This document shows, piece after piece, positions 30,732-34,894 of a DNA stretch of 64,000 nucleotides. The position numbers were made by a program, and so were the translations under genes. Within the stretch, counting starts at the first letter, position 1, and each line of letters starts with the position of its first letter. Where the stretch lies: the NCBI RefSeq assembly GCF_014522265.1, contig NZ_CP017024.1:2702001-2766000 (forward strand), in the 5' to 3' direction. Below the pieces are notes generated by a model that did not search any database, was not told where the DNA came from, and saw only the letters and a list, made by a program, of their open reading frames with translations. This stretch comes from Pseudomonas oryzihabitans. GTDB taxonomy: Bacteria > Pseudomonadota > Gammaproteobacteria > Pseudomonadales > Pseudomonadaceae.

Positions 30732-32543
30732 TCAGCGATAGCCTCTGGCCTGCAGATCGAACAGCTGGGCATAGCGGCCGCCGCTCGCCAGCAGCTGCTC
30801 GTGATCCCCTCGCTCGCGGATCTCGCCGCCTTCCAGCACCAGGATCTGATCGGCATTGCGCACGCTGGAGAAACGGTGCGAGATCAGCAGGGTCATGCGC
30901 TGCTGCGCCTGGGCGCGAAAGCGCTCGAAGATCACCGCCTCGGCGGCGGCGTCCAGCGCGGCGGTGGGTTCGTCCAGCACCAGGATGTCGGCGTCTTCGC
31001 GCATATAGGCGCGTGACAGGGCAATCTTCTGCCACTGCCCGCCGGACAACTCCTGACCGCCCATGAACCAGCGTCCGAGCTGGGTCTCGTAACCCTCGCG
31101 CAGACCGGCGATGACTTCGTCGGCCAGGCCCTGTTCGGCCGCCTTGCGCCAGCGCGCCCCGTCGTTGAAGGCCGTGGTGTCGCCGACCCCCAGATTTTCG
31201 CCAGCGGTGAGCTGGTAGCGGATGAAATCCTGGAAGATGACACCAATGCGCCTGTGCAGGGCGGCCGGCTGCCACTCTTGCAGATCGCTGCCATCGAGCA
31301 GGATGCGTCCCTGGGTAGGCGCATGCAGCCGGGTCAGCAGCTTGATCAGGGTGGTCTTGCCCGAGCCGTTGGCGCCCACCAGGGCCAGGCTCTGGCCCGG
31401 CGCCAGGTGAAAGCTGATGTCCTTGAGCGTCGGTGCGGTCGCGCCCGGATAGGTGAAGCCGACCCCGTCGAATCTCAGGCCATCTCCGGGCTGGCTGCCG
31501 GCCGTGAGGCTGCCGCCCTCGGCGCTGGTCGGCTGGCCCAGGTAGTCGTAGAGATTGCTCAGGTAGAGGCTGTCTTCGTAGAGTCCGCCAAGGGCCGTCA
31601 GGCTGGCGCTGACCGCGGCCTGGCCCTGGCGGAACAGGGTGAGATAGAGGGTCATCTGGCCCAGGCTCAGACGCCCGCGCACGGTATCGAGCACCACCCA
31701 GGCATAGGCGGCATAGAAGGCGAGGGTGCCCAGCAGGCCAAAGACGAAACCCCAGCCGTCACGTCTCAGGGTCAGGCGACGGTCCTCGGCATAGAGCTTG
31801 GTGAAGGTGGTGCGATAGCGCTCCAGCAGCAGCGGCGCCAGGCCGAACAGCTTGACCTCCTTGATGTAGGCCTCGTGGGAAAGCAGTGTCTCCAGGTAGG
31901 TCTGGCGGCGCGTCTCGGGTGCACGCCGACTGAACAGGCGAAAGGCATCGCCGGAAAAGCGCGCCTCGGCCAGAAACACCGGCAGGGCACCCACCACCAG
32001 CAGCAACAGCGCCCAGGGCGAGAAATGCACCAGCAGCACGGCGAAGCTGACGAGCGAGATCAGGTTCTGCAGCAGGGTCAGGGACTTGGTCACCAACGCC
32101 AGGGGCCGGATGGACGCCTCGCGCCGGGCCCGCACCAGCTTGTCGTAGAAATCCGCGTCTTCGAATTGTGCCAGCGACAGGGTCTGGGCCTTTTCCAGGA
32201 TCAGCAGATTCACGGTCTGCCCGAGGCGTACCCGCAGTAGCGATTGCTGCACCGACAGCAGCCGCTGGGCTCCCGCCAGGGCGGCCAGCACCCCGGCTTC
32301 GGCCAGCACGAACTTCAGCACTGGCCACAGCGGCGCCTGGCCCTGCTCGGCATGCAGCCGCATGGCCGCCACCACGGCATCGACGATGCGCTGCCCGAGC
32401 CAGGCGGCCAGGGCCGGCAGCAGGCCGGCGACCAGGGTGGCCAGAACCAGGCCGATCATCAGCGCGGGAGAGGTACTCCAGACCAGGCCGGCAGCGCGGC
32501 GCATCTGCTGTTGCACGATAGCGAAGGAAGTCGAGAGGGCCAT
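30732..32543 (-). CDS. ABC exporter half-transporter (fused TMD-NBD)
   Basis: A 603-residue type IV ABC half-transporter. Six membrane helices occupy roughly residues 20-330. The nucleotide-binding domain follows with Walker A ALVGANGSGKTTLIKLL, the Q-loop VIFQDF, the signature LSGGQWQKIALSRAYMR, Walker B ADILVLDEPTAALD and the switch His in LLISHRFSSVRNAD. It would work as a homodimer exporting lipids, peptides or drugs. The motif DADFYDKLVRARREA in the cytoplasmic loop resembles exporters linked to peptide natural products and immunity. No biosynthetic genes are nearby. Two tiny acidic genes follow on the same strand. Substrate unknown. Confidence 0.88.
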   Translation of the reverse strand: MALSTSFAIVQQQMRRAAGLVWSTSPALMIGLVLATLVAGLLPALAAWLGQRIVDAVVAAMRLHAEQGQAPLWPVLKFVLAEAGVLAALAGAQRLLSVQQSLLRVRLGQTVNLLILEKAQTLSLAQFEDADFYDKLVRARREASIRPLALVTKSLTLLQNLISLVSFAVLLVHFSPWALLLLVVGALPVFLAEARFSGDAFRLFSRRAPETRRQTYLETLLSHEAYIKEVKLFGLAPLLLERYRTTFTKLYAEDRRLTLRRDGWGFVFGLLGTLAFYAAYAWVVLDTVRGRLSLGQMTLYLTLFRQGQAAVSASLTALGGLYEDSLYLSNLYDYLGQPTSAEGGSLTAGSQPGDGLRFDGVGFTYPGATAPTLKDISFHLAPGQSLALVGANGSGKTTLIKLLTRLHAPTQGRILLDGSDLQEWQPAALHRRIGVIFQDFIRYQLTAGENLGVGDTTAFNDGARWRKAAEQGLADEVIAGLREGYETQLGRWFMGGQELSGGQWQKIALSRAYMREDADILVLDEPTAALDAAAEAVIFERFRAQAQQRMTLLISHRFSSVRNADQILVLEGGEIRERGDHEQLLASGGRYAQLFDLQARGYR

Positions 32544-32676
32544 GGCGGATCTTCGGCGAGGTTCAGTATTAGTCGAGGCGGCGGTCGCCGTGTTCCCGAG
32601 GCTATGGCAAAAGGCTTACACGCCCTGGTGTCACCTGGCCATGTTGCCGCCCCGGCGGGCTGCGTAATCTACACCT

Positions 32677-32789
32677 ATCAGCGGCGCAGGATGCGCAGCC
32701 TTGAGGTCACGGATGAAGACCAGGCCAGGATGGCGCCTGACAGGACGTTGGGATGGTCGCAACAAAGAACCCGCTTCGGCGGGTTTTTT
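32677..32789 (+). ncRNA. Candidate small RNA, array copy 1
   Basis: A -10-like TAATCT (32665-32670), preceded by TTGCC-type -35 matches at a short spacing, would start an RNA near 32677. It would end at the AACCCGC-UUCG-GCGGGTT stem and T6 run finishing at 32789, about 113 nt. Inside are a short hairpin (GCGCA-GGA-TGCGC) and a single-stranded CAACAAAGAAC stretch that resembles Hfq/Crc-type A-rich sites. No Rfam family is recognised. Confidence 0.35.
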
Positions 32790-32903
32790 GTTGGGCGCAA
32801 TTTGAGGCCGGCAGGCGGACCGGGCAGGGTATGGCAAAAGGCTTACACGCACTGGTGTCACCTGGCCATGTTGCCATCTCGGCGGGCTGCGTAATCTACA
32901 CCT

Positions 32904-33016
32904 ATCAGCGGCGCAGGATGCGCAGCTCTGAGGTCACGGATGAAGACCAGGCCAGGATGGCGCCTGACAGGATGTTGGGATGGTCGCAACAAAGAACCCG
33001 CTTCGGCGGGTTTTTT
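32904..33016 (+). ncRNA. Candidate small RNA, array copy 2
   Basis: Same organisation as copy 1, shifted by 227 bases, with intact -10-like TAATCT and terminator. It carries the AGCTCTGAGG variant and one unique change (GATGTTGGG for GACGTTGGG). Confidence 0.35.
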
Positions 33017-33130
33017 GTTGGGCGCAATTTGAGGCCGGCAGGCGGACCGGGCAGGGTATGGCAAAAGGCTTACACGCCCTGGTGTCACCTGGCCATGTTG
33101 CCATCTCGGCGGGCTGCGTAATCTACACCT

Positions 33131-33243
33131 ATCAGCGGCGCAGGATGCGCAGCCTTGAGGTCACGGATGAAGACCAGGCCAGGATGGCGCCTGACAGGAC
33201 GTTGGGATGGTCGCAACAAAGAACCCGCTTCGGCGGGTTTTTT
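33131..33243 (+). ncRNA. Candidate small RNA, array copy 3
   Basis: Same organisation; the core is identical to copy 1 across the predicted RNA. The spacer after its terminator has diverged from those after copies 1 and 2 (GTGATTCAGGATCGGCGGGCG). Confidence 0.35.
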
Positions 33244-33357
33244 GTTGGGCGTGATTCAGGATCGGCGGGCGCACCGGGCAGGGGATGGCGAAACGCTTAC
33301 ACGCACTGGTGTCACCTGGCCATGTTGCCATCTCGGCGGGCTGCGTAATCTACACCT

Positions 33358-33470
33358 ATCAGCGGCGCAGGATGCGAAGCTCTGAGGTCACGGATGAAGA
33401 CCAGGCCAGGATGGCGCCTGACAGGACGTTGGGATGGTCGCAACAAAGAACCCGCTTCGGCGGGTTTTTT
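33358..33470 (+). ncRNA. Candidate small RNA, array copy 4
   Basis: Same organisation; one change (GATGCGAAGC) weakens the small internal hairpin. Its terminator, read on the minus strand, also lies directly after the diguanylate cyclase stop (33500) and may serve that gene. Confidence 0.35.
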
Positions 33471-33499
33471 GTTGGGCGCGATTCAAGGACAGCGGGCGA

Positions 33500-34894
33500 T
33501 TAAGGTCCGGGTTCCGCAGCGATGCGGTTGCGACCGGCGTTCTTGGCCGCATAGAGCGCCCGGTCGGCGCCTTCGGTGAGGGTGTAGGCATCCATCCCGG
33601 TCCTGTAGGTAGCGATACCAACGCTCAGGGTCACCGCGCGCCGTGACCAGGCATGGTTGGCGACGGCAGCCCGACAACGCTCGGCCACCAAGTGGGCCGC
33701 GGTGAGATCGGCACCCGACAGCAGGATGGCGAATTCCTCGCCGCCGTAGCGAAAGCAGGCGTCATTGTCGCGACAGCTTTGTAGCAGCAGCTGACTGACC
33801 GTCTGCAATGCGGTATCACCGGCCTGGTGGCCAAAGGCGTCGTTGTAGGTCTTGAAGTGATCGACGTCGATCAGCAGCATGGACAACGGCGTGCCCTGGT
33901 CCTCGGCGCGCCGCAGATGCTCCGCCAGGCGCAGGTCGAAGGCGCGTCTGTTGAACAGACCGGTCAGGGCATCGGTGACGCTGCGTTGCTCGGCGGCCTG
34001 CATCATGTCCAGCAGTTGGCGCTGCGAGGCCTCCAGCATGTGCTGTTGCTCGATATGCTCGGTGACGTCCACCGACAGCCCCGCCAGGGCGATGCCCTGC
34101 CGCGTGACCAGGGGAAACTTGTAGGACTGCCAGAAGAGGCGTCGACCATCCGGGGCCGTCATGCGCTCGACGAGTCGACTCGGCTTGAGTTCGTTCATCA
34201 CCTGCTCGTCGACCTGGCGGAAACGTGGCGCCGCCTCTGGCCAGATGGTGAAGTCGTCCTGGCCGAGGACCTCGTCACGGGTCAGTTCCAGCTGCTGCAG
34301 GAAGGGCTCGTTGACATAGCGGTAGCGCCAGTCGCGGTCCTTGATGTAGGCGATGAAGGGCCCGTTGTTCATGAAGGCGGAAAAGTTGATGTCCAGCTCT
34401 TCCAGCTGGCGCAGGGTCTCGCGCTGTTGCAGCAGGATGATGACCTGCCGAGCCAGCCGTTGCAGGTTGTCGACCTGAGCCGCCTCGAACCGCCGGACCC
34501 GGTCGTCCATCACGCAGAGGGTGCCGAGGGCGACCCCGTGCCGGTCGAGCAGGGGAATGCCCAGGTAGGCGCGCATCCGTTCCAGCCCGGGTGCCGCCCT
34601 CAGGTGTGAAACGCGCGGGTCCCTCTGCAGATCCTCCACCAGAAAAGGCTGGCGAGGGGTGCGGATCGCCAGGTGGCAGAGCGAGGCGTCGGCCGGTACC
34701 TCGGCCACCGTCATGCCCTGGCAGGCCTTGAACCAGAGACGCTGCCGATCGGCCAGGGTGATGAAGGCCACCGGCGCCCGGGTCAGTTGGCAGGCCAGGG
34801 CGACGATGTCCTCGTAGGCGGCTTCGACACCGCTATCGAGAATCTGCAGCTCGCTCAGGGCGTGGAGACGCTGGGCGTCATCGGGGTGAGTCAT
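33500..34894 (-). CDS. Diguanylate cyclase (GAF-PAS-GGDEF)
   Basis: A 464-residue cytoplasmic protein that makes cyclic di-GMP. Residues 1-160 form a GAF domain (LQILDSGVEAAYEDIVALAC, LGIPLLDRHGVALGTLCVMD). A PAS domain follows (NNGPFIAYIKDRDWRYRYVNEPF to DVTEHIEQQ). The C-terminal GGDEF domain begins TDALTGLFNRRAFD and has the active-site GGEEF motif. Five residues before it is an RDND allosteric I-site (RxxD), so product inhibition is likely. There are no membrane segments, so the signal is intracellular. Transcription ends toward the repeat array. Confidence 0.93.
   Translation of the reverse strand: MTHPDDAQRLHALSELQILDSGVEAAYEDIVALACQLTRAPVAFITLADRQRLWFKACQGMTVAEVPADASLCHLAIRTPRQPFLVEDLQRDPRVSHLRAAPGLERMRAYLGIPLLDRHGVALGTLCVMDDRVRRFEAAQVDNLQRLARQVIILLQQRETLRQLEELDINFSAFMNNGPFIAYIKDRDWRYRYVNEPFLQQLELTRDEVLGQDDFTIWPEAAPRFRQVDEQVMNELKPSRLVERMTAPDGRRLFWQSYKFPLVTRQGIALAGLSVDVTEHIEQQHMLEASQRQLLDMMQAAEQRSVTDALTGLFNRRAFDLRLAEHLRRAEDQGTPLSMLLIDVDHFKTYNDAFGHQAGDTALQTVSQLLLQSCRDNDACFRYGGEEFAILLSGADLTAAHLVAERCRAAVANHAWSRRAVTLSVGIATYRTGMDAYTLTEGADRALYAAKNAGRNRIAAEPGP

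What the first reader, a model, noticed from the sequence alone, without database searches (positions are those of the whole stretch)
32603..33482. Four tandem 227-bp units, each with its own terminator: possible multi-copy small-RNA locus
Four head-to-tail copies with an exact 227-base period lie in an intergenic gap. Each has a -10-like TAATCT, an about 113-nt core that is nearly invariant, an A-rich CAACAAAGAAC stretch and a UUCG-loop intrinsic terminator with six Ts. The spacer between copies 3 and 4 has diverged more than the cores, as expected if the transcribed part is constrained. I recognise no known RNA family. If expressed, this would be a dosage-amplified sRNA cluster in the manner of tandem prrF or qrr genes.
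Basis: partly seen in the sequence, partly recalled or inferred. Interest (0 to 1): 0.75.

Follow-up and report, generated by a model that had tools for sequence, protein, structure and literature searches.

The report
Four tandem copies of RsmX RNA
The repeat is a row of four copies of a known Pseudomonas regulatory RNA, RsmX, which very likely soaks up the repressor protein RsmA; it is a long and changeable version of a known arrangement, not a new kind of RNA.

Summary
In detail: four head-to-tail units with an exact 227-bp period lie between an ABC transporter gene and a diguanylate-cyclase gene. 'No known family' is wrong: all four cores match Rfam rsmX (RF02144), 63.4-68.6 bits against a cut-off of 56. 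Each unit holds CTTACA, the intact half of a GacA-type upstream site, exactly 44 nt before TAATCT, then a 113-nt RNA with five GGA motifs and a terminator. In the 5.05-Mb genome, CTTACA-N(43-45)-TAATCT occurs five times: these four and rsmY; the reversed control occurs 0 times. The genome also has rsmZ, a GacA-type gene and two CsrA-family genes. Best reading: a dosage-amplified RsmX cluster, driven by GacA, that titrates RsmA. In eight genomes (this one included) with the site on one contig, copy number is 1-5; in some, copies within a genome resemble each other most. Tandem rsmX pairs are published (PMC7911923). I saw no array of four or more outside this genus in 398 family genomes, within the limits. 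Expression was not tested. New member of a known kind.

The parts
32603..32620 (+). GacA-type upstream site of copy 1 (TATGGCAAAAGGCTTACA; right half intact, left half degenerate)
32665..32670 (+). -10 element TAATCT, copy 1, 44 nt after CTTACA
32677..32789 (+). rsmX copy 1 RNA (start inferred; to end of T-run)
   Evidence: RF02144 at 32674-32789, 66.2 bits
32768..32785 (+). terminator hairpin core, copy 1
32830..32847 (+). GacA-type upstream site of copy 2
32892..32897 (+). -10 element, copy 2
32904..33016 (+). rsmX copy 2 RNA
   Evidence: 32901-33016, 68.6 bits
32995..33012 (+). terminator hairpin core, copy 2
33057..33074 (+). GacA-type upstream site of copy 3
33119..33124 (+). -10 element, copy 3
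33131..33243 (+). rsmX copy 3 RNA (identical to copy 1)
   Evidence: 33128-33243, 66.2 bits
33222..33239 (+). terminator hairpin core, copy 3
33284..33301 (+). upstream site of copy 4 (GATGGCGAAACGCTTACA; further changes in the left part)
33346..33351 (+). -10 element, copy 4
33358..33470 (+). rsmX copy 4 RNA (one pair of the first GGA hairpin broken)
   Evidence: 33354-33470, 63.4 bits
33449..33466 (+). terminator hairpin core, copy 4
30732..32543 (-). flanking gene: ABC transporter, divergent from the array
   Evidence: found in 13 of 13 genus genomes
33500..34894 (-). flanking gene: GAF-PAS-GGDEF diguanylate cyclase, convergent with the array

Best explanation
The locus is a tandem array of four rsmX genes. 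Phosphorylated GacA (inferred) acts at the CTTACA-containing site of each unit and switches on a promoter that has TAATCT at -10. Each unit makes its own RsmX RNA of about 113 nt that ends at its own terminator. The five GGA motifs per RNA bind RsmA-type proteins and pull them off target mRNAs (inferred from the family). Four near-identical units raise the RsmX dose. Shown by computation: Rfam membership, unit anatomy, the UAS/-10 spacing shared with rsmY and found nowhere else in the genome, conserved hairpins, presence of GacA-type and CsrA-family genes. Inferred: start sites, expression, GacA control, RsmA binding, and dosage as the reason for amplification.
For: RF02144 matches over all 114 model positions in 4 of 4 units. 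CTTACA-N44-TA(A/C)TCT in 25 of 25 units that could be read (24 with TAATCT, one, G010, with TACTCT; the 26th unit is cut by a contig end) and, with TAATCT, in the genome's own rsmY. That rsmY has a perfect TGTAAG-N6-CTTACA site, the form printed for rsmY of P. fluorescens SS101 (PMC4353343, passages). Genome-wide CTTACA-N(43-45)-TAATCT occurs only 5 times, reversed control 0. Five GGA in 26 of 26 units. Mean difference between genomes is 0.052 in the upstream site, 0.014 at -10, 0.062 in the RNA body and 0.004 in the terminator, but 0.582 after the terminator. On 25 RNAs 99.4% of cells of the consensus structure pair, against 36-50% when partners are slid. GacA-type gene over its cut-off (305.7 of 280 bits), two CsrA matches over cut-off, one rsmZ over cut-off.
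Against: The left half of the upstream site is degenerate: 4, 4, 4 and 5 mismatches of 12, and 346 of 6000 background 130-nt pieces reach 4 or fewer, so the palindrome alone is not significant. The four copies share ancestry, and rsmX and rsmY are in one Rfam clan, so the shared spacing is not five independent events. The own rsmZ shows no clear site (best 5 mismatches). The sigma-70 scan finds 0 promoters. Pairs with changes on both sides number 2, which 321 of 500 shuffles reach, although cells so changed and the covariation score exceed all 500. Only one strict ANGGA per RNA. No transcript data.
Confidence: 0.93

Rival explanations
1. The array is a neutral tandem duplication: one rsmX unit works and the others are passengers.
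For: Copies 1 and 3 have identical RNA and copies 1 and 2 an identical spacer, as recent duplication would give; copy number differs from genome to genome and G010 has one; copy 4 has a weakened site and a broken pair.
Against: In G007 and G009 copy 1 groups with copy 1 and copy 2 with copy 2 (support 83/55 and 88/84), so these two units seem to have outlived a species split; 26 of 26 units keep five GGA and 25 of 25 readable units the 44-nt spacing, while spacers drift.
Confidence: 0.2
2. The repeat encodes a small protein: open frames of 122 aa span unit junctions.
For: Two 122-aa ORFs at 32753 and 32980; in G002 the frame from the same start runs 122 and 115 codons with similar sequence.
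Against: In other genomes the frame from that start runs 16-59 codons in G008 (5 units), 63-84 in G012 (3), 43-76 in G009 (2), 46 in G007 (1), and in G006 (59-123) the sequence after about 13 codons is different; in this window copies 3 and 4 give 15 and 70 codons. The frame crosses a terminator.
Confidence: 0.01
3. The units bind a DNA protein as an array (for example clustered GacA) and transcription is secondary.
For: Regularly spaced, conserved upstream sites.
Against: RNA body and terminator are as conserved as the sites and fold, and scattered single copies with their own sites exist in three genus members.
Confidence: 0.03

Closest known systems
rsmX (Rfam RF02144) of Pseudomonas
   Same: Sequence-structure match above cut-off, about 110 nt, repeated GGA, GacA-type upstream site, terminator hairpin with T-run.
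   Different: Four units in one array; left half of the upstream site is degenerate.
Tandem rsmX genes of P. brassicacearum NFM421, P. fluorescens F113, P. stutzeri and P. syringae (PMC7911923; passages, Table 1 and section 25 seen)
   Same: Neighbouring rsmX genes; P. brassicacearum rsmX-2 has its own upstream site and start and was shown to be transcribed and GacA-dependent, with upstream-site changes offered there as the reason for weaker expression.
   Different: Those listed are pairs 75-87% identical; here four units with RNA 97-100% identical, in a clade with up to five.
RsmZ1-7 of Azotobacter vinelandii (PMC4824345 and PMC7366521, passages)
   Same: Multiplication of a GacA-controlled RsmA-titrating RNA.
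   Different: rsmZ type; the passages I saw do not say whether the genes are in tandem.
LhrC1-5 of Listeria monocytogenes (PMC4132741, passages)
   Same: Near-identical 111-114-nt sRNAs, with an lhrC1-4 locus, under one two-component system.
   Different: LhrC binds mRNA directly through CU-rich sites; a different RNA.
rsmY (RF00195) of the same genome
   Same: CTTACA-N44-TAATCT layout and GGA motifs.
   Different: Single copy with a perfect palindromic site; the array units score only 31.9-40.9 bits on the rsmY model, below 57.

Membership tests
rsmX (RF02144) | Covariance-model score at or above gathering cut-off (56 bits) | tested here: met
   66.2, 68.6, 66.2, 63.4 bits over model positions 1-114
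rsmX (RF02144) | Several GGA motifs, some in hairpin loops | tested here: met
   Five GGA per RNA in 26 of 26 units; GGA in the loops of the two conserved internal hairpins
rsmX (RF02144) | Rho-independent terminator at the 3' end | tested here: met
   Conserved seven-pair stem, TTCG loop in the window copies, six T
GacA-controlled Rsm sRNA genes | Palindromic upstream site TGTAAG-N6-CTTACA | tested here: inconclusive
   Right half intact in 4 of 4, left half degenerate (4-5 of 12 mismatches, not rare by itself), but at the same 44-nt distance from TAATCT as in the own rsmY
GacA-controlled Rsm sRNA genes | Transcription depends on GacA | not testable with these tools
   A GacA-type gene is present; no expression data
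RsmA-titrating sRNAs | RNA binds RsmA/CsrA protein | not testable with these tools
   Two CsrA-family genes are present
rsmY (RF00195) | Score at or above 57 bits | tested here: not met
   31.9-40.9 bits for the four units
Other Rfam families, such as those of base-pairing multi-copy sRNAs (prrF, qrr) | Match at the family's gathering score | tested here: not met
   The only matches in the window at gathering scores are the four rsmX (where related families overlap only the best is listed)

The most novel reading that the evidence does not exclude
The array is an adjustable dosage dial for the Gac-Rsm switch: weak upstream sites are compensated by unit number, which grows and shrinks by unequal recombination while gene conversion keeps the units alike, so lineages of this clade reset the RsmA titration threshold by gaining or losing whole rsmX units.
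Probability: 0.22. Interest if true: 0.55.

Novelty: new member of a known kind. Interest (0 to 1): 0.33.

Why it matters
RsmX copy number is known to vary in Pseudomonas, but what the number does is not settled. A clade with 1-5 near-identical units at one site, beside three genus members with eight to ten scattered matches, is a natural series for testing whether sRNA gene dosage tunes the Gac-Rsm switch.

Tried and rejected
Protein-coding reading of the 122-aa junction ORFs: rejected, the frame is not kept in most units of the relatives (it is kept in two units of G002). The two weak RF02144 hits elsewhere in the genome: one is rsmY, 53.9 bits on RF00195, just under its cut-off of 57; the other (L006) has most internal pairs non-standard and aligns well mainly at the terminator, so it is probably chance. 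Assembly artefact: rejected, since arrays recur in other genomes, among them the one-contig G006 and G007. Array shared by descent with G240 (another genus, three units, spacing 227/228): the stretch between CTTACA and -10 differs, and no match to the ABC or GGDEF protein was found in the stretches fetched around it; probably independent, not proven. Sigma-70 scan found nothing. Moll et al. 2010, the five-rsmX paper, is not held; what I say of it comes from PMC7911923 and PMC4132741. PMC12752356, listed for 'oryzihabitans' plus 'rsm', was checked: in the passages shown 'rsm' is in a cited Xanthomonas title.

Rows dropped: G011's single whole unit lacks its upstream part (contig end) and was left out of the tree and distance counts (25 of 26 units used). 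G005 has no rsmX over cut-off, but its contig begins 80 bases before the ABC gene, where the array should be, so I treat it as not assessable. The alignment used 25 chosen sequences of the 43 collected (39 distinct).

Full report
Observation. The window holds four head-to-tail units with start-to-start spacing 227, 227, 227, between a divergent ABC transporter gene (30732-32543, minus) and a convergent GAF-PAS-GGDEF gene (33500-34894, minus). The RNA part differs by 0-3 of 115 positions between copies. The 38 nt after the terminator are identical in copies 1 and 2 and differ by 9 in copy 3; copy 4 differs by 13-14, but its last 11 positions lie in the GGDEF gene.

Identity. Rfam at its curated thresholds gives four matches in the 64-kb window, all RF02144 rsmX and all in these units: 66.2, 68.6, 66.2 and 63.4 bits against 56, each over model positions 1-114. 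In the whole genome (one contig, 5,047,357 bases) six places match at E <= 0.001 and only these four pass the cut-off. The genome also has rsmY (53.9 bits, just under 57), one rsmZ (74.8 bits over 44), a GacA-type regulator (305.7 over 280) and two CsrA-family matches over cut-off, one in a 67-aa open frame and one in a 73-aa ORF.

Anatomy of a unit (copy 1). TATGGCAAAAGGCTTACA at 32603-32620; 44 nt; TAATCT at 32665-32670; RNA 32677-32789 with GGA at 32689, 32711, 32728, 32743 and 32751; terminator hairpin 32768-32785 and six T. The start site is inferred from the -10 element and the start of the Rfam model. The own rsmY has the perfect site TGTAAGCTTTGGCTTACA and the same 44-nt distance to TAATCT. 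CTTACA-N(43-45)-TAATCT occurs 5 times in the genome, at rsmY and the four units; the reversed control occurs 0 times. In the window the wider N(40-50) pattern gives 4 matches against a mean of 0.00 in 100 shuffles. Against this: the left half of the site is degenerate, and 4 mismatches of 12 is not rare (346 of 6000 background pieces at 4 or fewer); the own rsmZ shows no clear site (5 mismatches). Copies in the divergent genus members bridge the gap: of 14 examined, 4 have one mismatch, for example TGTAGGCAAAGGCTTACA, and the rest 3 or 4.

Conservation and structure. Over 25 units from eight genomes, mean difference between genomes is 0.052 in the upstream site, 0.170 in a box at 32632-32648, 0.436 in the gap before -10, 0.014 at -10, 0.062 in the RNA body, 0.162 in the A-rich 5 nt, 0.004 in the terminator and 0.582 after it. 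On 25 aligned RNAs the consensus has two GGA-loop hairpins and the terminator; 99.4% of cells pair, against 36-50% when partners are slid. Two pairs show changes on both sides (GC to AU in hairpin 1, AU to CG in the terminator stem); the number of such pairs is not above shuffles (321 of 500 reach it), while cells so changed and the score are (0 of 500). Single-sequence folds, terminator included, have z-scores of -3.2 to -4.0.

Relatives. RF02144 was searched in the 13 held genus genomes. The ABC gene is present in 13 of 13. Beside it the array has 4 units here, 3 in G002, 5 in G006, 2 in G007, 5 in G008, 2 in G009, 1 in G010 and 3 in G012. Two drafts break at this place: G011 (one unit at a contig start, a partial one at the end of the contig with the ABC gene) and G005 (none seen). 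Short-read drafts could also collapse units, so draft counts may be too low; G000, G006 and G007 are single contigs. G002 has the contig length of NZ_CP102428.1, P. oryzihabitans YY7, and G011 that of NZ_JAVHTY010000007.1, Pseudomonas sp. 102515, which places the window in the genus group of P. oryzihabitans. The other three genomes (G001, G003, G004; ABC 70-72% identical) have 10, 8 and 10 RF02144 matches spread over contigs, of which 4, 6 and 6 pass the cut-off; some of these places score higher as rsmY; none is on the contig of the ABC gene. From recall these might be the P. luteola lineage; I did not test that.

Evolution. In the tree of 25 units the five G006 copies form one clade and the five G008 copies another; three of four G000 copies group together, the fourth (G000_1) lying in an unresolved fork with the three G002 copies. 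Against homogenisation, G007 and G009 copies group by position, and G012_1 groups with G010_1 rather than with G012_2 and G012_3. Support is modest: 4 of 22 inner branches are starred. In G008 every copy's best match outside the genome (0.904-0.923) is below the lowest identity inside (0.934); in G006 the outside best (0.913-0.944) at most equals the inside minimum (0.944); in G000, G002 and G012 the ranges overlap; in G007 and G009 the outside best is higher (0.899-0.959 against 0.874 and 0.864). This fits duplication or gene conversion within some genomes, with older units in others.

Family. In 398 genomes drawn from the family, 300 have a match at E <= 0.001 and 199 one over cut-off; outside this genus the most matches per genome was 5 (stricter filters, at most 9 candidates scored per genome). 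I picked by eye the 56 genomes outside the genus with three or more matches there and rescanned them: read by eye, the longest same-strand run with spacing under 700 nt was three units, in G240; the others had at most two. Genomes with fewer matches were not rescanned. So arrays of four or five were seen only in this genus, within those limits.

Literature. Tandem rsmX pairs, with transcription and GacA dependence shown for one, are in PMC7911923 (passages, Table 1 and section 25 seen), which also cites up to five rsmX in P. syringae from Moll et al. 2010 (not held). PMC7366521 (passages) gives one to seven Csr/Rsm RNAs per species.

Mechanism. Most likely GacA activates each unit and the RNAs titrate RsmA-type proteins; four units multiply the dose. 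Membership in rsmX is shown by computation; expression, GacA control, protein binding and the benefit of dosage are inferred. Interest is limited because family, mechanism and tandem arrangement are known; array length, copy-number range and partial homogenisation are the new part.

Noticed in passing
G001, G003, G004 (loci L054-L058, L062-L064): Three genus members carry 10, 8 and 10 RF02144 matches (4, 6 and 6 over cut-off, some scoring higher as rsmY) scattered rather than in tandem, with four in 26-28 kb in G001 and G004 and three in 8.5 kb in G003; they had more matches (8-9) than any other of the 398 family genomes.
   Followed up: partly
L065 (G240:C1:1399639-1400202): A genome of another genus of the family has three tandem rsmX units with nearly the same period (227/228) and a different stretch between upstream site and -10.
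   Followed up: partly
L060 (G000:C1:1183114-1183350, minus): The genome's rsmY scores just under the Rfam cut-off; its TAATCT lies about 50 nt upstream of the Rfam match, and the stretch between holds a further GGA hairpin, so the Rfam match may miss the 5' end.
   Followed up: partly
window 32768-33466: The four terminator hairpins also read as terminators on the minus strand; the last could serve the convergent GGDEF gene.
   Followed up: no
G005:C12 and G011:C2/C7: Two draft assemblies break at this array, so rsmX copy numbers from drafts of this group are unreliable.
   Followed up: yes
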